From Bacteroidales bacterium (lineage in GTDB: Bacteria; Bacteroidota; Bacteroidia; Bacteroidales; UBA12481): a DNA stretch of 12,636 nt. How positions within the stretch are numbered: position 1 is the first letter of the stretch; the number at the start of each line of letters is the position of its first letter. The position numbers were made by a program, and so were the translations under genes. The notes under the pieces were generated by a model. That model was given only the letters and a program-made list of their open reading frames with translations. It was not told where the DNA came from and searched no databases. The DNA lies in contig JAQWAJ010000017.1 of NCBI GenBank assembly GCA_028707745.1, positions 1 through 12,636 of the forward strand, given 5' to 3'. Positions 1,143 to 10,662 of this stretch are shown here, one piece after another.

Positions 1143-2270
1143 ATGGAACCAGTTCGTATTTTATTCTCGGCCATTAACGGATATGGCTTTTATTATCTGA
1201 AAACCCTCTTTGAAGAGATACCTGAAGATCAGGCTGTTATATGCGGTGTAATCGCCCCGCACCCTGAAAAATCTGATTATTTTGAAAAGCTGACCGGCAT
1301 GGGTGTGCCGATCTATAAAGATTTTGATTCCTTTTTCAAGGATGGTCACCAGGCAGATCTGACGGTGATTTCATCCCCGTTACAGTATCATGTACCTCAG
1401 GCAATCACTGCATTGCGATATGGAAGTAATGTATTGGTAGATAAGCCTGTAGGGGTAACGCCTGAAGAGGTCAGCGAACTGATATCGGTTAAAAATAAGA
1501 CGGATAAATGGGTTGAGGTAGGCTATCAGTGGTCGTTCTCCAGTGCCATCCAAAATCTGAAAAAAGATATATTGGCCGGTAAATTCGGCAAAGCGATCCG
1601 GATGAAAGCGATCTGCATGTGGCCGCGCGGATATGCCTATTTCGGCAGGAACAACTGGGCCGGGAAGATCAGGGCCAATGACGGTACCCTGATTCTCGAC
1701 AGTGTGGCTAACAATGCCAATGCCCATCACCTGCACAACCTGTTTTTCCTCTCGGGACCGGTCATGAACCTGAGTTCAGTGCCGGTATCGGTTACGGGTA
1801 AGCGCTATCGTGCCAATGAAATCGAGAATTTCGATACGGTCGTTTGCAAGGCGCTAACCGACACGGGAGTCGATATTCAGTTTTATGCAACCCATGTCGC
1901 TGAAAATCCGCTGAATCCGGCATTCTATCTCGAATTTGAAAAAGCCAATATCCGCCTGGATGCCGATTCCAATGGCATTGAAGCTACCTTGGCTGATGGA
2001 ACCACCATGAATTACGGACATCCCGATTCGGATCATCAGTTCAAAAAACTCTTTGTGGGAATTGAAAAATGTAAAAACCCGGGAGTATCGATCTGCCCCC
2101 CGGAAGCTGCAATTTCTCAAACGATTTGTATCAACGCATTGAATGAATTGCCCGAAGCCATTCAGAATTTCCCTGCAGAATCTGTGGTTATGGCAGAAGA
2201 CAGGCGTTGGGTCAAAGGGCTTGGAGAGAAGATGGTGGAGGCGTATGGTACGTGGGGAGTGTTGGAGTGA
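1143..2270 (+). CDS. Gfo/Idh/MocA family NAD(P)-dependent oxidoreductase
   Basis: Predicted cytoplasmic dehydrogenase of 375 residues, normal for the family. The N-terminal Rossmann half begins RILFSAINGYGFYYL, a loose version of the GxGxxG dinucleotide loop. The family signature [DE]KP is DKPVG, with the presumed catalytic Lys101. The C-terminal half carries a histidine-rich active-site helix, NANAHHLHN. Family members oxidise, reduce or epimerise sugars and cyclitols, including uronates and amino sugars; the exact substrate cannot be read from sequence. The ATG is preceded by an A/T-rich stretch without a Shine-Dalgarno site, usual in Bacteroidota. Its TGA stop (2268-2270) falls inside the first unit of a heptamer repeat, so the last residues may have been shaped by repeat insertion. 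It sits upstream of a URO-D-like protein and a polysaccharide lyase, suggesting a step in the catabolism of the released sugar. Confidence 0.9.
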   Translation: MEPVRILFSAINGYGFYYLKTLFEEIPEDQAVICGVIAPHPEKSDYFEKLTGMGVPIYKDFDSFFKDGHQADLTVISSPLQYHVPQAITALRYGSNVLVDKPVGVTPEEVSELISVKNKTDKWVEVGYQWSFSSAIQNLKKDILAGKFGKAIRMKAICMWPRGYAYFGRNNWAGKIRANDGTLILDSVANNANAHHLHNLFFLSGPVMNLSSVPVSVTGKRYRANEIENFDTVVCKALTDTGVDIQFYATHVAENPLNPAFYLEFEKANIRLDADSNGIEATLADGTTMNYGHPDSDHQFKKLFVGIEKCKNPGVSICPPEAAISQTICINALNELPEAIQNFPAESVVMAEDRRWVKGLGEKMVEAYGTWGVLE

Positions 2271-2299
2271 CGAGTGACAAGTGACGAGTGACGAGTGAA
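2265..2299 (+). repeat. Heptamer tandem array, five units of GAGTGAC
   Basis: Five consecutive 7-bp units: GAGTGAC, GAGTGAC, AAGTGAC, GAGTGAC, GAGTGAA. The array begins three bases before the stop of the upstream oxidoreductase, supplies that stop, and ends 22 bases before the ATG of the next gene. Because 7 is not a multiple of 3 and each unit holds TGA, the array places stops in all three + frames. The same heptamer in reverse complement recurs at 10635-10662. Confidence 0.93.
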
Positions 2300-2321
2300 A
2301 AAACAACAGAAGCACATTAAA

Positions 2322-3335
2322 ATGAATTCACGTCAGTTAGTTGAGAAGACCCTGAATTTTGATTCTCCATCGCGGATTCCCCGGCATCTGTGGTTATTGC
2401 CTTGGGCCGAGCTGCGATATCCGGAGTATTCAGCGAAGATCAGGCAAATGTACCCTGATGATATTGCCCAGGCGCCGGCTGTATTTAATAAGCCGCTGAA
2501 TCTTACTGGCGGCAAGTATAAGAAGGGATTGTACATTGATGAGTGGGGATGCAAGTTCATGAACATGGAAGAAGGGTTGATGGGCATCGTTCATGAGCCA
2601 TTGATTAAAGAGTGGTCCGACCTCGAAACCTTTCATACTCCGGATGCCGCGCTCGATATTGACACTGATGCGATCAACCGCTTTTGCCATTCGACCGACA
2701 AATTCGTTTATGCCGGGAGTATCGTCAGGCCCCTCGAAAGGTTCCAGTTTCTCCGCACGATGGAACAATCGATGACGGATGTGCTGTTTGAGGAGCCTGA
2801 ATATGTTGAATTGCTGAACCGAATGCATATCCATTTTTGCAAAGAGGTGGAAGTATGGGCCAAAACTGACATCGACGCCATATTCCTGATGGACGACTGG
2901 GGCACCCAGCATGCCATGATGCTGTCGCCCGATGTGTTCCGGAAATATTTCAAGCCGATGTATAAAGAGTATTGCGAGATTGCCCGTCACTATGGGAAAT
3001 ATGTATTTATGCACTCCGATGGCAACATCGAAGAGATCATGCCTGAACTTGCCGAAGTGGGTGTAAATGCGATCAATAGTCAGCTTTTCTGTATGGATAT
3101 GGATCGTTTAAGCCGGGAAGTGGCCGGAAAAATCTCTTTCTGGGGTGAGATCGACAGGCAGAATATTTTGCCAAACGGAACTGAAGATGACATCCGTGAT
3201 GCAGTGAATCTGATTTACACAAAACTTTACAGAAATGGTGGGGTTATCGCACAATGCGAATTTGGCCCGGCCGCCAATCCGGAGAATATTTTAAATGTCT
3301 TTAAATACTGGAACAGAATAACACAAAACCAATAA
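2322..3335 (+). CDS. Uroporphyrinogen decarboxylase (URO-D) superfamily protein, MtaA/methyltransferase-like
   Basis: A 337-residue cytoplasmic protein of the URO-D superfamily, which includes HemE and the cobamide-dependent methyltransferases MtaA and MtbA. The opening MNSRQLVEKTLNF and the segment around RIPRHLW resemble the N-terminus of MtaA-type members. I chose the ATG at 2322; the in-frame GTG at 2295 lies inside the heptamer array and would add nine Lys/Gln-rich residues. In MtaA zinc is held by a HxC motif and a later Cys. Here the equivalent segment is MHSDGN (His231, Asp233), with Cys312 in AQCEFGP at similar spacing, so one Cys ligand has become Asp. A haem-synthesis role is unlikely, given the sugar-gene neighbourhood and this motif. 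It ends seven bases before the lyase and is probably cotranscribed with it. Methyl transfer or a decarboxylation on a sugar-derived compound is only inference. Confidence 0.85.
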   Translation: MNSRQLVEKTLNFDSPSRIPRHLWLLPWAELRYPEYSAKIRQMYPDDIAQAPAVFNKPLNLTGGKYKKGLYIDEWGCKFMNMEEGLMGIVHEPLIKEWSDLETFHTPDAALDIDTDAINRFCHSTDKFVYAGSIVRPLERFQFLRTMEQSMTDVLFEEPEYVELLNRMHIHFCKEVEVWAKTDIDAIFLMDDWGTQHAMMLSPDVFRKYFKPMYKEYCEIARHYGKYVFMHSDGNIEEIMPELAEVGVNAINSQLFCMDMDRLSREVAGKISFWGEIDRQNILPNGTEDDIRDAVNLIYTKLYRNGGVIAQCEFGPAANPENILNVFKYWNRITQNQ

Positions 3336-3342
3336 TTATAAA

Positions 3343-5655
3343 ATGAAACGTTTATTACTCCTCGTGCTCCTGATTCCCGTTTGTCTGGTTGCGACTGCAC
3401 AGACTCCGGTACAACAGATCCCACTGAAGAAGTATCTGGAATATGCCAGGGCTTCTGCTGATTATGTTTATAGTCAGAAAGATTCAATCGTGATTAAATG
3501 GCGTAAAGCTATGGACCCGGAAGATATTTTCGGATACCGTGCTCCGGGTAACCTGCTTGAAATGGCCGCTATTTATGCAACCCTTTATGAAATGGAGGGA
3601 AATAAGAAATATGCAGAACGGGCAAAAGAAGTTCTTCTGACTTACGGCGATTACGCAAAAGAGTTTCCGGTAGCCATAGCCCGCCGAAAAGCGGATTATG
3701 TTGACGGTGTGCCGGCACTGCCTGATTTCTTTACCACCATGCGATATCTGCAGGCTTACGATAAACTGAAGGATAAAGGTATACTGAGTGTATCTGAAAA
3801 AGCCAAAGTTGAAGACCTGATCGCAAAATGCCTGGTGTTTCTCCTCCGCACGCAGGAATGGGGCGCCATGAATCGGTCGGCTTTGCGTGCCGAGACTTTG
3901 TGCTGGGCCGTCAGGGTTTTGCCAAATCATCCGGTTACACCGATGTTGAAAACATACGAACAAGCGTTGCTTTCAGATAACTGGGGCAAATGGGAAATTG
4001 AAGATGCATCCTTATATCATGGGGTATGGCTATACTCTCTGATCGGTTGTGCAGATGCCAAAAACCAGATGAAAGAATTGTTCGAAGCTCCTACTATTTA
4101 CTTCTATTCCAGGTACTTCACTCAACTGATGTCTCCGCAGAGCATGATCCCGGATTACGGTGATGCCGCGAATTATACGAACTGGAACCGATGGATCGTG
4201 TTCTTTGAAACTGCCGCTAAACAGTATAATAACCCGAATATGAAATGGGCTGCCACCATGATTTCCCAAAAATTCATGGATCTCAGCAAACCTACCAGCG
4301 TAGGTCTCGGTTATATGCTGCTCGATGCCTATCGTTTCGGATCCGATAAAATTATCCCGAAAGCCCCATCAGAAATGAGCGAAGAGGTTCTCGAAGATAT
4401 GGTTGGCAAGAAAATGGTTTACCGCAACGGCTGGGATGCAAAGTCGACCTATATGTTGCTGAATTACCGGGATGAAGGTGACGGTGGCTTACTCTATCGT
4501 GATTATTTGCGTAATGCAATTCCTATTGAGGAAGAAAAAGTTACTCACGGTCATGCAGATGAAAACAGCATCGCCCTGTTGACCTATAAAGGATCAACTT
4601 TGCTGACCGATGGCGGCTATCGCGATTTTCTGCCCAGCGGCTATTACGGATCATTCCGTCAGGATTACTTCCACAACCGGTTGTGCGTCAGAAATGAGAA
4701 AGTTTGGTTTGGCCAGAACAAGGGTGAATATCGTTACGGACAGCCTGATCATCCTGCTATTGACCGCCAGAACATCATGGATTTCATGCACAACGCAGGC
4801 TCGTACCGGAAAACCAGAACCCAAAAGGTTGATTTTCTTACTTATCCTGATCATGATTATACCAGAACGCGTGTGATCGATGATGAAATGGGATATGAAA
4901 GCGACCGGGTGATCGTATATGTAAAAGATCCTGAAATGTTTGTTGTTTTCGATGTGCTCAAATCGAGATCTGAACAGTTCTTTACCGGTGTTAATCTTTG
5001 GCATGCACAAAAAATTGTGAGCCAGGGAAATCATTGGTATGATACTAAATATGAAACTGTTGCAACTCTTAAAGTTCCTGGCGACCAAAACCTGTTGATC
5101 TATTTCCCGAAGAATCATTATCGGTTTGAACAGACCAACAAAGAGAACCGTAACTATCAGCAGGAAATGGCAATTGCCGAATATTCAGGACAATTCTTTG
5201 AACTGGGGCAACAGACCGGTTTCGTTACTGTGTTAATTCCGCATTCCGAAAAAGTGAATCCTGAAACCCTGATCAAGGGAATTGAATATGTGCCTGCTTC
5301 AACTGAAGAAGCCGGGATGGCTGTCAGAATTAAGCTGGCCGACAAAACCATTTTTGTGGGTATGAAAAGTGATCTGAAAGAAGATCTGGTTAAAGATTAC
5401 CAGCGCCCGAAATATGATTTTGCTACTGGAAAACTCGCTTATGGTGATATTGAAACCAATGCTGATTTCTTTTATACCGAGCAAAAAGGCGATAAGCTCT
5501 CCTTTACCGTGGTTAACCTGACCAAAGCAACTTACAAGGGTAAAACTCTGTATGAACAGCCTTCGTCCTATTTCGGACTTAATTTCGATGGTCGTCAGGA
5601 TGCTCCGGATATCGGGAAAGCCAGACTATGGAGAGATACGATCGTAGTTAAATGA
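3343..5655 (+). CDS. Secreted heparinase II/III-family polysaccharide lyase
   Basis: A 770-residue exported protein. The N-terminus (MKR followed by a Leu/Val-rich core and VATA|Q) is a type I signal peptide, probably cut after residue 19. Residues from about 25 to 350 are helical with Tyr/Trp-rich repeats, as in the (alpha/alpha) toroid of the PL12/15/17/21-type lyases; candidate catalytic positions are Asn177 (AMNRSALRAET) and Tyr272 (IPDYGDA). Next comes the heparinase II/III-like beta domain (Pfam PF07940), with HGHADENS (His402, His404) and the FHNRLCV segment (His444), which matches the conserved HN-x-v strand of the family. The remainder to residue 770 is beta-rich. The family cleaves uronic-acid-containing polysaccharides by beta-elimination, leaving an unsaturated uronate at the new end. 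Which polymer (alginate, glycosaminoglycan, ulvan or other) cannot be decided here. It sits seven bases after the URO-D gene and is followed at once by KDPG aldolase, consistent with uronate catabolism. Confidence 0.88.
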   Translation: MKRLLLLVLLIPVCLVATAQTPVQQIPLKKYLEYARASADYVYSQKDSIVIKWRKAMDPEDIFGYRAPGNLLEMAAIYATLYEMEGNKKYAERAKEVLLTYGDYAKEFPVAIARRKADYVDGVPALPDFFTTMRYLQAYDKLKDKGILSVSEKAKVEDLIAKCLVFLLRTQEWGAMNRSALRAETLCWAVRVLPNHPVTPMLKTYEQALLSDNWGKWEIEDASLYHGVWLYSLIGCADAKNQMKELFEAPTIYFYSRYFTQLMSPQSMIPDYGDAANYTNWNRWIVFFETAAKQYNNPNMKWAATMISQKFMDLSKPTSVGLGYMLLDAYRFGSDKIIPKAPSEMSEEVLEDMVGKKMVYRNGWDAKSTYMLLNYRDEGDGGLLYRDYLRNAIPIEEEKVTHGHADENSIALLTYKGSTLLTDGGYRDFLPSGYYGSFRQDYFHNRLCVRNEKVWFGQNKGEYRYGQPDHPAIDRQNIMDFMHNAGSYRKTRTQKVDFLTYPDHDYTRTRVIDDEMGYESDRVIVYVKDPEMFVVFDVLKSRSEQFFTGVNLWHAQKIVSQGNHWYDTKYETVATLKVPGDQNLLIYFPKNHYRFEQTNKENRNYQQEMAIAEYSGQFFELGQQTGFVTVLIPHSEKVNPETLIKGIEYVPASTEEAGMAVRIKLADKTIFVGMKSDLKEDLVKDYQRPKYDFATGKLAYGDIETNADFFYTEQKGDKLSFTVVNLTKATYKGKTLYEQPSSYFGLNFDGRQDAPDIGKARLWRDTIVVK

Positions 5656-5671
5656 TTTGAATGAACTGATC

Positions 5672-6331
5672 ATGGAAAATATTAGAAACCAGATTGTTTC
5701 GGGGGGGATGGTGCCGGTTTTTAACCACACCGATCAGGAGATTGCCTGTCGGGTTGTTAAAGCTTGCTATGACGGAGGTTTACGGGTTTTTGAATGGACG
5801 AACCGGGGTGTTGAAGCAGAGGGGATGTTTAAGGTGGTTAAAGAGTTCATCAGCAAAAACTGCCCCGGAATGCTGCTGGGTGTGGGATCTGTGTTCGATG
5901 GGGATACCTGTCGCAGGTTTCATGCCATGGGAGCCTCATTCATCGTGAGTCCTGTGGTAGATCCGGAAATGGCTAAGGCTTGTAAAGAGCTGAAAGTTAT
6001 GTGGATACCCGGTTGTGGTACGGTTACTGAAATTTTTCAGGCACAGAAATGGGGTGCCGGAATCGTTAAGATATTCCCTGGTGATGCGGTAGGTGGTCCC
6101 GGCTTCGTGAAAGCGGTGCTGGGGCCCATGCCGTGGGCGCAGATCATGCCAACCGGTGGGGTTAGTCCCGAACCGGAAAATCTGAAGGCCTGGTTCAAAG
6201 CCGGTGTCTGCTGCGTGGGAATGGGATCCAAACTGTTCACTAAAGAGAGGATCAATGATCCGGATCCGGAAAAACTCGTCCTGGAGATTAAAATAGTGAT
6301 GCAAACTATCGAAGGATGCAGGATGAAATAA
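5672..6331 (+). CDS. eda: KDPG/KHG aldolase (2-dehydro-3-deoxy-phosphogluconate aldolase)
   Basis: Class I aldolase cleaving 2-keto-3-deoxy-6-phosphogluconate to pyruvate and glyceraldehyde 3-phosphate; related enzymes also cleave 4-hydroxy-2-oxoglutarate. I chose the ATG at 5672, giving 219 residues; an in-frame TTG at 5657 would add five. With this start the Schiff-base lysine in GIVKIFPGDAVGG is Lys133, the same number as in the E. coli enzyme, and the proton-transfer Glu plus phosphate-binding Arg are Glu41 and Arg45 in FEWTNRG. The second half shows the TIM-barrel phosphate loop PTGGVSPEPEN. It starts 16 bases after the lyase stop, and its 3' end overlaps the next gene. Linked to a polysaccharide lyase, it most likely completes uronate degradation via KDG and KDPG; KDG kinase is not in the window. 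A G7 run at 5701-5707 spans codons 10 to 12. Confidence 0.9.
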   Translation: MENIRNQIVSGGMVPVFNHTDQEIACRVVKACYDGGLRVFEWTNRGVEAEGMFKVVKEFISKNCPGMLLGVGSVFDGDTCRRFHAMGASFIVSPVVDPEMAKACKELKVMWIPGCGTVTEIFQAQKWGAGIVKIFPGDAVGGPGFVKAVLGPMPWAQIMPTGGVSPEPENLKAWFKAGVCCVGMGSKLFTKERINDPDPEKLVLEIKIVMQTIEGCRMK

Positions 6332-7206
6332 CCGGAGCAGGTATGGTAATCGCAGAAACCAATCTTCGCGACGTAGGAGGAATCCTGACGAAGAGCGGAC
6401 AAACCATCAGAAAGGGATTACTATACCGGTCGGGGAACCTTGAAAAATTGAATAAAGAAAACCAAATGGCTGTCTGTGGGTTAAACCTGCAGACAGCCAT
6501 TGATTTTCGTGCTGATGAGCAACGGAAAAGATCCCCGGGGAATTATTCCGGTATACGGGAAGTTGTTCTTCCCTGCGACATCGACAGGCCCACGAGAGAG
6601 CGCCTGAAACCTCTGCTGATGCGCCGTTCGGGAGACGAAGCAATCATCGGCGCCATGGATAGCGTGTACCGCGAAATGGTTGATATGATGGTTCAGCCCG
6701 TGGGTGATATGATCAGAATTCTGCTGAATCCGCATGACCGACCGGTGCTCATTCACTGCCAGGGTGGGAAGGACCGCACCGGTTTTGCCACCGCGGTGAT
6801 CTATTGGATACTCGATGTGGATCAGGAAGTTATTATTCACGATTATCTGAAATCCAACGAGTTCATGCATAAAAAGCTCCGTAAAATTATCAGACGGATG
6901 AGGATCTTTACCTTCGGAATATTTCCGAAAAGCAACCTGTATGCAGCATTCGAAGTTAGGGCACAATACCTTGACTCTGCCTGGTCGGTGATCCAGACAA
7001 AATATGGCGGGCTCGAAGGCTATCTGGCTGCAGCAGGAATCGGGACGGAGGATATTACTAAACTCAGGGAGGAACTCATGGAGACCGGAGAACGGAGACC
7101 GGAGACCGAAACCCAAAACCCAATACCCAAAACACAAAACACAAAACCCAATACCCAAAACGCGAGACGCGAGACGCGAGACCCGAAACCTGATACCCAT
7201 TCTTAG
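6316..7206 (+). CDS. Tyrosine-protein phosphatase family protein (Y_phosphatase3-like) with repeat-encoded C-terminal tail
   Basis: Predicted cytoplasmic phosphatase of 296 residues. The N-terminus carries the family signature NLRDVGG followed by GLLYRSGNL, as in PF13350 tyrosine/serine phosphatases, and the P-loop CX5R is [10 protein letters not shown] with nucleophile Cys148 and Arg154. Substrate may be phosphotyrosine, phosphoinositide or another phosphate ester. The ATG at 6316 overlaps the aldolase by 16 bases; an alternative in-frame ATG at 6343, preceded by GGAGCAGG, would give a protein nine residues shorter and removes the overlap, and is nearly as plausible. The recognisable domain ends near residue 255 (LREELM). 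The last 41 residues, rich in Thr, Asn, Gln, Lys, Arg and Pro, are translated from a 17-unit heptamer array, so this tail is probably an acquired, non-functional extension. The stop lies one base before the next ATG. Confidence 0.87.
7082..7200 (+). repeat. Heptamer tandem array, 17 units in unbroken 7-bp phase
   Basis: Seventeen consecutive 7-bp units without a phase break. Four resemble AGACCGG, seven resemble AACCCAA (with TACCCAA and AACACAA variants), then come AACGCGA, GACGCGA twice, GACCCGA, AACCTGA and TACCCAT. The loose consensus is D-A-C-N-S-R-R. The array codes for the C-terminal tail of the phosphatase and ends seven bases before the start of the permease gene. The unit sequence changes in blocks while the 7-bp phase is kept. 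Confidence 0.95.
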
Positions 7207-7207
7207 C

Positions 7208-7965
7208 ATGATAACCGACCTCCTCATCGCATTAGCAGCGGCCCTGACAGCGGGATTTATCAATGCTGTGGCCGGCGGAGGAACTCTGGTGAGTTTCCCG
7301 GTGCTGATTGCATTGGGATTGCCTCCGGTGGCTGCAAATGTGACGAATACCGTGGCGCTCTGTCCCGGTTATTTTGGTGGGATTCTTGCTCAGCGCAAGG
7401 ATTTTGCCACACATAAAAAAAGCTTTACCTGGTTCTGCCTTTGAGTATTCTTGGAGGGATTACCGGAGGCCTGATTCTGCTGAATACCGGAGAAAAGGCT
7501 TTCGAAGGAATTATTCCGTACCTGATTCTGCTGGCCTGTCTGCTTTTGGGCATTCAGGTTCCGGTTAAAAAGTGGATGCAATCCCGGAGCGGAAAACAGC
7601 ACAGCACCCTGATCAAACGTGCCGGCGCTCCGGTCATGCTTTTTCTGGCATCGGTTTACGGCGGTTATTTCGGTGCCGGAGTGAGTGTTATCGTCATTGC
7701 TGTTCTCGGACTGATTTATGATGACTCGCTAAACAGTTTAAACGTCCTGAAACAAGCGATCTCATTCAGTATCAATATTTCAGCAGCGATCTATTTCTGC
7801 TTTTCGGGCCAGGTTAATTGGGCCTTTGCGCTCGTAATGATGGCTGGTGCTGTACTCGGCGGTTTATTAGGCGGCCGTTTCGCAAGCCGAATTAAACCCT
7901 CGGCACTCCGCTGGACCGTCATTGTTATCGGAAGCACCGCCGCCCTGATCTATCTGTTTAAGTAA
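7208..7965 (+). pseudogene. TSUP family (TauE/SafE) membrane permease, split by a -1 frameshift
   Basis: Four-TMS-type sulfite exporter/permease family (PF01925), likely in the inner membrane, moving sulfite, sulfonates or other small organic or sulfur anions. The N-terminal part, frame from ATG 7208, reads [20 protein letters not shown] and [13 protein letters not shown], the classic TSUP start, but stops at TGA 7442-7444. The family match continues in another frame as [13 protein letters not shown] through to the TAA at 7963-7965, with further glycine-rich helices (FLASVYGGYFGAGVSV, AGAVLGGLLGGRFASRI). The frame switch maps to the seven-A run at 7415-7421: one extra A joins both parts into a protein of 252 residues, a normal TSUP length. 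So this is either a one-base indel (real mutation or sequencing error), or slippage on the A run during transcription or translation. An isolated start at TTG 7441 is unlikely to make a working protein. Confidence 0.87.
7415..7421 (+). other. A7 homopolymer at the permease frameshift site
   Basis: Seven A residues followed by G. The upstream frame reads CAT AAA AAA AGC; the downstream frame reads AAA AAG CTT from 7417. A gain of one A, or a -1 slip of the lysine tRNA from 7418-7420 to 7417-7419, restores one continuous reading frame. It is not a canonical X XXY YYZ site in the zero frame, because the base before the first AAA codon is T. Confidence 0.75.
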
Positions 7966-7967
7966 AC

Positions 7968-8066
7968 AACAACTACAACAACGACAACAGTTACAACAAC
8001 TACAACAATTACAACAACTACAACAATTACAACAACTACAACAACTACAACAACTACAACAACTAC
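7968..8066 (+). repeat. Nonamer tandem array, eleven units of AACAACTAC
   Basis: Eleven exact-length 9-bp units: eight are AACAACTAC; the variants are AACAACGAC (second), AACAGTTAC (third) and AACAATTAC (fifth and seventh). That makes nineteen bases different in none of the other eight units, so the array is young or homogenised. It starts two bases after the permease stop and ends 30 bases before the ATG of the next gene. All + frames through it are open, but no start codon lies in the frame of the downstream gene, so it is not translated as an extension of that protein. Confidence 0.95.
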
Positions 8067-8098
8067 ATCCTCCAAATCTTCAACCTTTCTACCCTTAT
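7991..8098 (+). promoter_or_regulatory. G-free leader immediately upstream of the GHL10 gene
   Basis: From 7991 to the first two bases of the ATG at 8097 there is no G on the + strand: 108 bases made of the nonamer array plus a C/T-rich stretch. If transcribed, this RNA could form neither G-C nor G-U pairs within itself and would stay largely single-stranded before the start codon. A role as a ribosome standby or translation-promoting leader is inferred from composition alone; no promoter or Shine-Dalgarno site is visible in it. Confidence 0.45.
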
Positions 8099-9155
8099 GA
8101 AAACAAAACTCCCCCTTCTCCTGATTGCCTGCATGCTCTGCCTTGGAGCCTTTGCTCAAAAAGAAAAAGGAAGCACGCCGGTATCTTCAACTGAATTCCG
8201 TGGTGTCTGGCTGCATTCGACTTTTTTCGATAAAAAGGCCGATATTGCCCGCGCACAAATTGTCAAACTCTTTGATTCCTACCAGGAAATCGGAATCAAT
8301 AATTTGTTCTGCTACTATACTTTACCTGAGGAAAACGGTCTCGACTGGGATTATCTCCAGGTATTGATCGATGAGGGGCACAAGCGGGGAATCAGGATAC
8401 ACCCGACTTTCTGTCCCGGTCATGAAACGGCCAGCATCGGCGAAATCAAGGATCATCCGGAGTGGTTGATCGTTAACCGTGATGGGACAAAATTCAATGC
8501 GCTGAATTTAACCCGCGCTGATGTTCGTGATTTCTGGAAGAGGCAGATCCGGGAAGTCATGAAGTACGATATTGACGGCATTCATCTCGATTACATGCGG
8601 TTTCCGGTCAATCAGCAATTCAGCTATGACAGCCTGACTATCAGTCTTTTCAGAAAAGAGTATGGCCGCTCACCGCTCGACGATTCACAGGATGACGGCA
8701 GCATTCTCTGGTGTGAATGGATCAACTGGAATGGAAGGCAGATAACCGGACTACTTAGGGAGATCCGGGAACTGGTCAACCAGTCGGGCAAGAAAATTCT
8801 GCTGGGTGCCGACGTATTTCCGAATCCCGAGACCTCAAAAGTATTGATCGGACAGGATTGGGCCAGCTGGGCCCAAACCGATTTACTGGATTTCATCTGC
8901 CCGATGTTTTATACCAACAACCTTGATCTTTTCAGGGAATATACAGACCGTGCGGTAAAGATTACAAAGAAAGGTATGGGTGTTTACCCGGGTGTTGGGG
9001 TAGGGACATCTCATAATAAGATTACTAAAGACCTGTTAGTTAAAGAGGTACAGATCACACGTGATGCGGGCACTGGCGGTGTCATCTTTTTTTCGGGCTT
9101 TTCATTCGATTCAGGAATGAGTGATACCCTAAAAACAACATTGTTCAGAAAATAG
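8097..9155 (+). CDS. Secreted family 10-like glycoside hydrolase (GHL10 / PF02638 type)
   Basis: A 352-residue exported protein with a TIM-barrel architecture typical of the GHL10 (formerly DUF187) group. A signal peptide spans MKTK plus a hydrophobic core to AFA|Q (about residue 20); an alternative lipobox LIAC at Cys12 is possible but the preceding region is short. The mature part begins FRGVWLHSTFF, the usual strand-1 signature (RGVW), followed by GINNLFCYY on strand 2. The key strand motif is DIDGIHLDYMRFP, with Asp160 and Asp165 as likely active-site acids, and later LLGADVFPN and FICPMFYTNN match the following strands. The GHL10 group is thought to hydrolyse polysaccharides, but the natural substrate of most members is unknown. 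It lies downstream of the nonamer array and 21 bases before the AGE-family gene, with which it probably forms a pair. Confidence 0.85.
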   Translation: MKTKLPLLLIACMLCLGAFAQKEKGSTPVSSTEFRGVWLHSTFFDKKADIARAQIVKLFDSYQEIGINNLFCYYTLPEENGLDWDYLQVLIDEGHKRGIRIHPTFCPGHETASIGEIKDHPEWLIVNRDGTKFNALNLTRADVRDFWKRQIREVMKYDIDGIHLDYMRFPVNQQFSYDSLTISLFRKEYGRSPLDDSQDDGSILWCEWINWNGRQITGLLREIRELVNQSGKKILLGADVFPNPETSKVLIGQDWASWAQTDLLDFICPMFYTNNLDLFREYTDRAVKITKKGMGVYPGVGVGTSHNKITKDLLVKEVQITRDAGTGGVIFFSGFSFDSGMSDTLKTTLFRK

Positions 9156-9176
9156 TAATTCCATTTTTAGCATAAA

Positions 9177-10634
9177 ATGAAAAGGTTAGGATTTATTTCG
9201 ATTCTCGCAGTATTTTTCTGTGCTTCCTGTTTTACGCAAAATGGTAAACAAACAGATGTGATTACTGGCAAATACTGGAAAAATCAGGTTGTCAAAGATA
9301 TATTGCCGTACTGGACTAATCTTGCTCAGGACACACTCAACGGAGGGTTTTTTACGACTCTGGATTCTGTCTGGAAACCATTTGGTGATACCCGTAAGTA
9401 TCCGAGTATGCTGTCGAGGCATGTATTTGGCTACTCGGTTGGATACTTGCTATCGGGAGATCAGCATTACCTGGATATTGCGCGTAAGACTGTTGATTAT
9501 CTTCTGGATCATGCATGGGATAAGGAATATGGAGGGTGGTATGATGTCTTGGATGAGCAGGGAAATCCCTTGGAAACCACCAAAAACATGTTCATCCAGG
9601 TTTACTCTACAACCGGACTTGCGATGTACTACTTCGTTACGAGAGATCCCAGGGTGCTGGAATATGTTGAAAAATCGAATCACCTGATTGAGGCTAATGC
9701 CTGGGATCAGGATTTTGGCGGATACTATAATAAAATGACCCGGGATTGGAAGGTGCTTGACAGCACAAAATCAATCAGTTCAGAGATTACTCCTGTTTCG
9801 GGATATCTGCTTTACCTCTATCAGGCCACGCATGAAGAGAAATATCTCGATCAGTGCCGGAAAATTCTGGATATGATTACCAGACAAATGATCGACCCTG
9901 AAAGCGATTGGGTTCTGGAATCCTTCTCACGGGAATGGCAATACCAGCCTGGAGCGCAGAATGAAACCGAAATCAGTCCCGGGCATAATATCGAAGTGGC
10001 CTGGATGCTTTACCGTTATTACCTGATTACCGGCCGGACGGACTATCTCGACCGAGCCAATCGATTAGGTGCCAAACTATTTCAGTTTTGTAACCAACCG
10101 GATCTGAATTTCTGGTATAATTCAGTGGGTCGTTTAAATCCGGAGCAGACCGCTGATATTACATACTGGTGGGTACAAGCTTATGGTATTATGTTTGACC
10201 TTATATCCTACCGTATTCAAAACCAAAACAAATACCTGGATGATTACCGGAAAGGAGCCTCCTTCTGGGATTCCTGTTTTGTGGACCGGAAGAATGGAGA
10301 TACCCAGTTCAGTGTTCTGACCAATGGAAAAGTGAAGGAGGCACTGAAAGCCAACCAATTTAAAGCATCCTACCACAATGCCGAAAATGGAATGCTCAAC
10401 TATCTCTATCTGAATGCATGGGTAAACAAAGAACCGATTGAATTGTATTTCTATCTTTCGGGGGATAGGGGAGACAAACCGTTTTATGCCAGTCCGATCG
10501 AAGGGAATGATCTAATGATTAAAAGTATTGAAACTGATAACAAATCTACAGTGATCCTTTCCAAGGACCGCCTTTCGGCAAACATTAAAGGGAAGAACAA
10601 TACCCGGCTGAAAGTAACCCTCATCACAAACTAA
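9177..10634 (+). CDS. Exported AGE-family (N-acylglucosamine 2-epimerase-like) protein
   Basis: A 485-residue protein of the AGE superfamily, an (alpha/alpha)6 barrel that isomerises sugars at C1/C2 (N-acylglucosamine and cellobiose 2-epimerases, mannose isomerase). Conserved active-site positions are visible: Arg81 in LSRHVFGYS, the repeated GGWYD and GGYYN loops, His270 and Glu273 in SPGHNIEVAWML, the WWVQAYG segment (usually WWxQAE), and His400 in ASYHNAENGM. Unlike typical cytoplasmic AGE enzymes it starts with a hydrophobic export signal ending FFCASC, a weak lipobox with Cys18, so it is probably periplasmic or membrane-anchored. A beta-like tail of roughly 70 residues follows the catalytic region. 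The E-to-Y change in the WWVQA segment and the export signal mean the activity may differ from sugar epimerisation, for example binding or hydrolysis of an oligosaccharide. It follows the GHL10 gene by 21 bases. Confidence 0.82.
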   Translation: MKRLGFISILAVFFCASCFTQNGKQTDVITGKYWKNQVVKDILPYWTNLAQDTLNGGFFTTLDSVWKPFGDTRKYPSMLSRHVFGYSVGYLLSGDQHYLDIARKTVDYLLDHAWDKEYGGWYDVLDEQGNPLETTKNMFIQVYSTTGLAMYYFVTRDPRVLEYVEKSNHLIEANAWDQDFGGYYNKMTRDWKVLDSTKSISSEITPVSGYLLYLYQATHEEKYLDQCRKILDMITRQMIDPESDWVLESFSREWQYQPGAQNETEISPGHNIEVAWMLYRYYLITGRTDYLDRANRLGAKLFQFCNQPDLNFWYNSVGRLNPEQTADITYWWVQAYGIMFDLISYRIQNQNKYLDDYRKGASFWDSCFVDRKNGDTQFSVLTNGKVKEALKANQFKASYHNAENGMLNYLYLNAWVNKEPIELYFYLSGDRGDKPFYASPIEGNDLMIKSIETDNKSTVILSKDRLSANIKGKNNTRLKVTLITN

Positions 10635-10662
10635 GTAACTCGTCACCCGTCACTCGTCACTT
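10635..10662 (-). repeat. Heptamer tandem array, four units of GTCACTC (reverse complement of GAGTGAC)
   Basis: Four 7-bp units on the + strand: GTAACTC, GTCACCC, GTCACTC, GTCACTT. The unit is the reverse complement of the heptamer at 2265-2299. It begins at the first base after the AGE-gene stop and ends three bases before the next ATG, so it makes up nearly the whole intergenic gap. In this orientation the + strand carries no stop codon in the canonical unit. Confidence 0.9.

What the first reader, a model, noticed from the sequence alone, without database searches (positions are those of the whole stretch)
2265..10662. Short tandem arrays fill four gene junctions and each ends just before a start codon
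Arrays at 2265-2299, 7082-7200, 7968-8066 and 10635-10662 end 22, 7, 30 and 3 bases before the next ATG, and three begin within three bases of, or just after, the previous stop. Unit lengths are 7, 7, 9 and 7 bp with different sequences. In a genome this compact, four arrays at such positions in 8.4 kb look like a recurrent process, such as slippage-prone junction spacers, a repeat-generating mechanism, or cis elements in 5' leaders. Heptamer repeats between genes are known from cyanobacteria (STRR); a comparable system here would be worth describing.
Basis: partly seen in the sequence, partly recalled or inferred. Interest (0 to 1): 0.78.

Follow-up and report, generated by a model that had tools for sequence, protein, structure and literature searches.

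The report
Seven-base repeat arrays between bacterial genes
Short head-to-tail repeats, mostly of seven bases, sit between genes in a group of uncultured freshwater Bacteroidetes; they belong to a known but little-understood kind of bacterial repeat, they lie closer to gene ends than to gene starts, and in the commonest word some bases stay fixed while others vary.

Summary
The arrays are real, but need three corrections: arrays 1 and 4 are one word (GTGACGA) on opposite strands; array 2 is three words in one 118-bp tract inside an ORF, adding about 40 residues to a phosphatase-like protein; array 3 is a 9-mer of another kind. Such arrays are genome-wide: in 69 readable contigs (377 kb) lag 7 gives 10 strong segments, lag 9 five, lag 8 one, two shuffles none. 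Of 21 period-7/14 arrays, 11 share the skeleton GTNAC. In 36 same-strand junctions the median gap is 3 bp to the stop and 34 bp to the start. No clear strand rule, no terminator signature. Orthologous junctions in three relatives mostly hold other words, though one shares the skeleton at g2-g3. Strong claim: within GTNAC arrays variation falls on the N and two spacer bases (core changes 1 of 17 in the sample; 1 of 80 in a congener), which simple slippage does not predict. New variant of known heptanucleotide repeats: the published words GGGNATC and TAACTGA occur in the same family. Cause and function stay open; an RVT_1 reverse transcriptase is not required.

The parts
2265..2299 (+). Array 1: about five GTGACRA heptads; the first unit holds the TGA stop (2268-2270) of the Gfo/Idh-like gene 1143-2270
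   Evidence: (TRF score 61)
7080..7197 (+). Array 2: about 17 heptads in three successive words (GGAGACC, AAACCCA, GAGACGC) on a RANACNN skeleton (reverse complement NNGTNTY); inside ORF 6316-7206
   Evidence: register and skeleton read by eye
6316..7206 (+). g6, Y_phosphatase3 protein; the last ~40 residues are encoded by array 2; the L111 orthologue ORF has 263 residues against 296 here
   Evidence: scan made from codon 6334: domain at residues 9-250 of 290
7966..8067 (+). Array 3: 11 copies of the 9-mer ACAACAACT with variants, directly after the TAA of the TauE-like frame
   Evidence: related 9-mers TACAACAAT in L082 and ACAACAATT in L106
10635..10662 (-). Array 4: about four GTNACNN heptads, the array-1 word on the other strand, directly after the TAA at 10632-10634
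1143..2270 (+). g2, Gfo/Idh/MocA-type oxidoreductase upstream of array 1
   Evidence: PF01408
2322..3335 (+). g3, uroporphyrinogen-decarboxylase-like protein downstream of array 1
   Evidence: PF01208

Best explanation
The four arrays are local members of a genome-wide population of short tandem arrays, mainly heptads, that turn over quickly between genes. Shown: a small set of words recurs at many junctions; most orthologous junctions compared hold other words or none; arrays sit mostly just after stop codons and often overlap the stop; period-7 arrays are rare inside genes; no clear strand rule is seen. Inferred: units multiply by tandem duplication (replication slippage or unequal exchange), words are somehow copied between junctions, and arrays survive where little is constrained, downstream of stops rather than in promoter or leader DNA. 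Also shown: in GTNAC arrays the bases G, T, A and C stay nearly fixed while the N and the two spacer bases change. Inferred from that: an extra sequence-specific constraint (a DNA-binding factor, or a sequence-selective duplication or repair step) acts on these heptads. They are probably not 5'-leader regulators, not intrinsic terminators and not reverse-transcriptase products.
For: Strong arrays only at lags 7, 8, 9 and the multiples 14 and 18 among lags 2-20; two shuffles 0. Same word: 77 hits on 27 contigs, control 0. 11 of 21 period-7/14 arrays of the sample (parts of one tract counted apart) have a GTNAC consensus; about 2.7% of random heptad words would (my arithmetic, 64 of 2,340 cyclic words). 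Orthologous junctions: same gene order, mostly other words and periods in L111, L112, L113. Position: 36 same-strand arrays, median gap 3 bp to stop, 34 to start, 26 nearer the stop; 34 with free room: KS p=1.4e-5, sign test 24 of 34, p=0.024. Density per kb of junction: convergent 1.15, same-strand 0.48, divergent 0.36 (6, 16, 5 arrays). Strand: 7 GTGAC-sense, 5 GTCAC-sense. T-run after 3 of 25 arrays, 33 of 256 genes in general. Core changes 1 of 17, p=1.3e-5; in congener G001 1 of 80 in the middle units of all 88 listed matches on 45 contigs. PF00078 not found in array-rich G006, G160, G172, G180, G195.
Against: Pure slippage explains neither the same word at dozens of junctions nor the fixed core. 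No dispersal route is shown: beyond overlaps inside one locus, flanks of different arrays give only four short matches of 16-36 bp. Part of the spacer variation may be old and copied, so changes are not all independent. Within single arrays columns are not more conserved than uniform change predicts (248 invariant columns, 253 expected, 51 arrays); the effect appears when GTNAC arrays are aligned with each other, and no like rule was found for other words. In the distant genome G180 three of the 21 one-mismatch rows shown (capped list) change a core base. Over all same-strand arrays the sense strand is purine-rich in 23 and purine-poor in 12, a lean that a strand-specific role could also give. 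At g2-g3 the relative L112 has GTGACGC heptads right after the stop like the window, so inheritance in place is possible there. Stop-side preference is weak outside the own genome (11 of 19; own 13 of 15). Genes come from a script of mine; starts are uncertain.
Confidence: 0.6

Rival explanations
1. 5'-leader regulatory elements: arrays are binding sites in mRNA just upstream of start codons, as proposed for TAACTGA in Beggiatoaceae.
For: The four window arrays end 3-30 bp before an ATG. Related 8-mer arrays at g2-g3 run up to the ATG in L111 and L112, with a degenerate version in L113. 12 of 36 same-strand arrays lie within 10 bp of a start.
Against: 23 of 36 lie within 10 bp of a stop. Lowest density between divergent genes (5 arrays). 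Both orientations of the GTNAC word occur (7 and 5). In the window the same-word junction g3-g4 and g4-g5 have no array while the relatives do.
Confidence: 0.1
2. Plain neutral slippage at each junction, without spread between junctions and without constraint.
For: Heptanucleotides are the commonest long simple repeats in many bacteria (Mrazek 2007 as cited in PMC4679880). Within-array column variation looks uniform. Period-7 arrays avoid genes. Over the phylum the reversed control word is as widespread as GTNAC.
Against: Word sharing across dozens of junctions. GTNAC core nearly fixed. GTNACx4 in 6 of 7 congeners, the reversed control word in none of them.
Confidence: 0.2
3. Intrinsic terminators or RNA hairpins at gene ends.
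For: Stop-side location. CG-spaced palindromic arrays fold well (6 of 25 arrays with z below -2; L019 z -6.8, L001 z -5.6; mononucleotide shuffles).
Against: Most GTGACGA arrays fold weakly; T-runs follow 3 of 25 arrays against 33 of 256 genes.
Confidence: 0.07
4. Repeat addition templated by a reverse transcriptase, telomerase-like.
For: A fixed period with a fixed core would fit a template (inference).
Against: PF00078 is found in 14 of 30 genomes (8 of 16 with at least 10 GTNACx4 hits, 6 of 14 with fewer) and not in array-rich G006, G160, G172, G180, G195. Other RT families were not tested.
Confidence: 0.02

Closest known systems
GGGNATC heptameric repeats of Xanthomonas and Nostoc (Rehm et al. 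2015, PMC4692102; abstract and sections 3, 13, 16 read)
   Same: Period 7, intergenic, close to gene ends, under-represented between divergent genes, no functional class. The word occurs here too: GGGTATC arrays in this genome (12 hits at up to 1 mismatch, reversed control 4) and GGGAATC in family member G008 (64 hits).
   Different: There G-quadruplex formation, a preference for four units and a strand rule; here the main word GTNACNN has no G-tracts and several words can share one tract.
TAACTGA direct repeats of marine Beggiatoaceae, Cyanobacteria and some Bacteroidetes (MacGregor 2015, PMC4679880; abstract and sections 3, 8, 10 read)
   Same: Heptamer direct repeats at junctions, patchy taxonomy. 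The exact word is in relatives G003, G006, G008, not found in this genome.
   Different: There mostly just before start codons, and one-base variants are rare as repeats; here stop-side, and variable at the N and the spacers.
Long simple sequence repeats with heptanucleotide units (Mrazek 2007; known only through PMC4679880 and PMC4692102)
   Same: General category: period 7 prominent.
   Different: No word skeleton or fixed core is described in the passages read.
Cyanobacterial STRR heptamers (recalled; no paper found)
   Same: Tandem heptamers between genes (recalled).
   Different: Words not compared by any tool.

Membership tests
Intergenic heptanucleotide simple sequence repeats | Period 7 dominates and lies outside coding DNA | tested here: met
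   10 strong lag-7 segments, 8 non-coding; 14 of 18 period-7 arrays non-coding
GGGNATC repeats (PMC4692102) | Repeat word GGGNATC | tested here: not met
   The four window arrays do not have it. Other arrays of this genome do: 12 hits in G000, reversed control 4
GGGNATC repeats (PMC4692102) | Near stop on the sense strand or near start on the antisense strand, few between divergent genes | tested here: inconclusive
   Stop-side position and low divergent density seen (5 divergent arrays); strand rule not clear (7 and 5 by word, 23 and 12 by purine content)
TAACTGA repeats (PMC4679880) | Repeat word TAACTGA | tested here: not met
   0 hits in G000; present in G003, G006, G008 of 20 genomes
TAACTGA repeats (PMC4679880) | Mostly directly upstream of start codons | tested here: not met
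   26 of 36 same-strand arrays nearer the stop; the four window arrays themselves do end 3-30 bp before an ATG
Cyanobacterial STRR | STRR consensus words | not tested
   No source with the words was found
Intrinsic terminators | Hairpin followed by a T-run | tested here: not met
   T-run after 3 of 25 arrays, 33 of 256 genes

The most novel reading that the evidence does not exclude
GTNAC (more widely GTNWC) heptad arrays are a genus-wide, and elsewhere in the phylum recurrent, recognition array: an unknown sequence-specific DNA factor, or a sequence-selective duplication machine, reads a core every seven base pairs at gene ends and spreads the words from junction to junction, switching on and off between sister species.
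Probability: 0.25. Interest if true: 0.8.

Novelty: new variant of a known kind. Interest (0 to 1): 0.52.

Why it matters
Heptamer repeats have been reported from several phyla without an explained cause (PMC4692102, PMC4679880). This lineage has many, in a few related words, and has sister species in which the main word was not found, so the cause can be sought by comparison. A fixed core with free spacers predicts something that reads the DNA. The arrays also overlap stop codons and can add new protein tails, as in the phosphatase-like gene of the window.

Tried and rejected
Rejected: intrinsic terminators as a general account; RVT_1 reverse transcriptases as a requirement; a strand-specific RNA element is not supported but not excluded (7 and 5 by word; 23 and 12 by purine content). 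Weak: Y1 transposase (PF01797) is present in 15 of 16 genomes with at least 10 GTNACx4 hits and 9 of 14 with fewer (hit counts); confounded by relatedness and genome size, and G008 counts as 'few' although rich in other words. A general 'five-base core plus two spacers' rule for other heptad words was tested and not supported (column distances 1, 2, 3 in 14, 9, 15 pairs of 16 arrays, p=0.44). GTNAC is neither avoided nor favoured outside arrays (observed/expected 1.07). At phylum scale the GTNAC word is not special: 33 of 296 genomes including our own, against 40 (my count of the listing) for the reversed control word; in the rest of the order 4 of 48 against 9 of 48. Paper searches: (open-licence papers; listings capped); of the short-tandem-repeat survey PMC12699852 only passages were seen, one of which names Bacteroidota as rich in such repeats. 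Script faults: one search called no genes (bug, redone); the header says three shuffles, two were run; one search is a one-step Markov control.

Rows dropped: contigs more than half N were left out from then on (12 of 80 in G000, 4 of 20 in G004, 9 of 20 in G006, 0 of 13 in G002). Clusters inside genes (11 of 70) and at contig edges (8 of 70) were left out of the distance counts.

Full report
What is in the window. The sequence and ORF list and my gene calls (12 genes) show a one-strand stretch: a partial first gene (not scanned), a Gfo/Idh oxidoreductase (g2), a URO-D-like protein (g3), a 770-residue protein without a Pfam match (g4), a KDPG-type aldolase (g5), a Y_phosphatase3 protein (g6), a TauE-like frame (g7), a GHL10 glycosyl-hydrolase-like protein (g8), a GlcNAc 2-epimerase-like protein (g9), DUF2284 (g10) and a metallophosphatase (g11) (the g5 and g6 translations began a few codons inside the frame). 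TRF confirms the reported arrays. Arrays 1 (2265-2299) and 4 (10635-10662) are one word, GTGACRA, on opposite strands. Array 2 (7080-7197) is a single tract that passes through three words, GGAGACC, AAACCCA and GAGACGC, keeping a seven-base register with one single-base slip (read by eye); it is open in the frame of g6 and supplies its last ~40 residues, beyond the phosphatase domain. Array 3 is a 9-mer, ACAACAACT.

Genome scale. The window is contig C109 of an unnamed draft genome (2,346,578 bases, 440 contigs, 67% complete). Scoring self-match at each lag from 2 to 20, strong segments occur only at lags 7 (10), 8 (1), 9 (5), 14 (7) and 18 (4), and none in two shuffles. Of 18 non-redundant period-7 TRF arrays 14 are non-coding, in DNA that my caller puts at 92% coding; three of the other four are array 2 of the window. 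Words without the skeleton also occur, such as AAGGGCG and AGGGCAG.

One skeleton dominates. CRAGTGA x3 with up to two mismatches has 77 overlapping hits on 27 contigs, reversed control 0. GTNNCNN x4 has 107 and 122 hits on the two strands, control 2 and 10. In the sample 11 of 21 period-7/14 arrays have a GTNAC consensus, parts of one tract being counted apart and two of the 11 lying in the window. A single tract can run from GTATCGG into GTGACGA into GTTACGG in register (L038 1682-1776).

Fixed core, free spacers. In the 11 GTNAC arrays of the sample, changes by column are G 0, T 0, N 8, A 0, C 1, spacers 6 and 2: core 1 of 17, expected 4/7, p=1.3e-5. In 19 further arrays around hits of the word search (biased sample) core changes are 15 of 54, p=2e-5. 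In the congener G001, all 88 matches to GTGACGA x3 with up to three mismatches were listed and used; in the middle unit the mismatches are G 1, T 0, N 3, A 0, C 0, spacers 23 and 53: core 1 of 80; over all 21 positions core 7 of 240. I therefore claim the core effect for GTNAC only.

Where arrays sit. From the sample, 14 further own-genome loci, G004, G006, L111 and L112, 70 clusters (periods 7, 8, 14 or 16) were placed: 36 in same-strand junctions, 7 convergent, 8 divergent, 11 inside genes, 8 at contig edges. Same-strand: median gap to the stop 3, to the start 34; 26 nearer the stop, 10 nearer the start. For the 34 with free room KS p=1.4e-5 and sign test 24 of 34, p=0.024; 23 of 36 lie within 10 bp of a stop, 12 of 36 within 10 bp of a start. 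Own genome 13 of 15 nearer the stop, other genomes 11 of 19. Density per kb of junction in the sets taken without regard to arrays (G000, G004, G006): convergent 1.15, same-strand 0.48, divergent 0.36 (6, 16 and 5 arrays). Orientation of the GTNAC word to the upstream gene: 7 and 5; purine-rich sense strand in 23 of 36, purine-poor in 12, so no clear rule, but a lean that more data should check. Several arrays contain or overlap the stop codon, array 1 among them.

Orthologous junctions. Three uncultured Bacteroidetes contigs (L111 Loclat_bin-03441, L112 PowLak16_MAG2, L113 AM-2014_bin-1198) keep the order g2-g3-g4-g5-(g6)-g7 at 67-84% protein identity for g2-g5 (g6 was not found in L113, g8 and g9 in none). 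At g2-g3 the window has GTGACGA heptads after the stop; L112 has GTGACGC heptads at the same place, the same skeleton, plus an 8/16-mer before the ATG; L111 has an 8-mer ATTAGCAC array ending at the ATG; L113 has a degenerate version of it (by eye). At g3-g4 the window has 7 bp and no array, L111 AAAGGGT heptads, L112 and L113 other AC- or GA-rich tracts (by eye). At g4-g5 the window has none, the three others 8-mers of the GCTAATTT/GTGCCAAT kind (L113 by eye). At g6-g7 and after g7, L112 has heptads of the GATAACC/GAAACCT kind and L111 none. So words are partly kept among relatives and partly replaced; at this divergence intergenic DNA is expected to be saturated, and the point is that the same junctions are filled again with other words.

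Distribution. GTNAC x4 hits 12 of 60 genomes: own, 6 of 7 congeners (134, 4, 52, 31, 88 and 11 hits; G002 none), 1 of 4 others of the family, 4 of 48 others of the order. The reversed control is absent from the genus but present in 9 of those 48. Over the phylum 33 of 296 genomes (our own included) have it, with on/off contrasts inside genera (g109: 322, 315, 0, 0; g135: 236, 0), but the reversed control word is in 40 of 296 (my count), so each lineage seems to have its own words and GTNAC is not special there. GGGNATC x3 (up to 1 mismatch) is in 8 of 20 chosen genomes, all in this family; in G000 12 hits against 4 for the control. TAACTGA x3 is in 3 of 20, not in G000.

Mechanism. Period and turnover fit tandem duplication; survival after stops fits relaxed constraint (both inferred). 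The same word at dozens of junctions seems to need copying between places, yet flanks of different arrays share only four short matches of 16-36 bp, so the route is unknown. Terminators and RVT_1 reverse transcriptases do not explain it. The fixed core is the one feature that calls for a specific reader or maker.

Novelty. Heptanucleotide repeats between genes are known (PMC4692102, PMC4679880; abstract and named sections read). New here, as far as the open-licence searches show: several related words in one register, the GTNAC core with free spacers, stop-side placement in a Bacteroidetes lineage, refilling of orthologous junctions with other words, and both published words in one family.

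Noticed in passing
window 7208-7965: The TauE-like gene reads as two frames (7208-7444 and 7441-7965) while the L111 relative has one frame of 253 residues; a frameshift, real or from assembly.
   Followed up: partly
L112 5991-6075: An array of ACACGGAGA-like units faces its complement and is followed by a T-run, so here a repeat tract does look like a terminator hairpin (by eye).
   Followed up: no
L113 about 10960, L112 about 7007, L081 about 2584: A dispersed GTCATCCCCGCGAAAGCGGGGACC-like hairpin repeat sits in junctions of several of these genomes, next to arrays.
   Followed up: no
L082 5857-6138: Clusters of 9/18-mers (AAGTACCTAAAGTGCCTA kind) fill a long intergenic stretch; another word set of period 9.
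   Followed up: no
G008 (same family): Rich in Xanthomonas-type GGGAATC arrays (64 hits) and TAACTGA arrays (25 hits) but without GTNACx4 hits.
   Followed up: partly
L014 707-795 and L015 1168-1265: Two different junctions carry the same composite order, a GGAGACC block beside a GTCACTC block, which hints at copying between junctions.
   Followed up: no
L113 and genome G004: Contig G004:C18 has the same length (105,251) as the L113 contig, so G004 is probably AM-2014_bin-1198.
   Followed up: no
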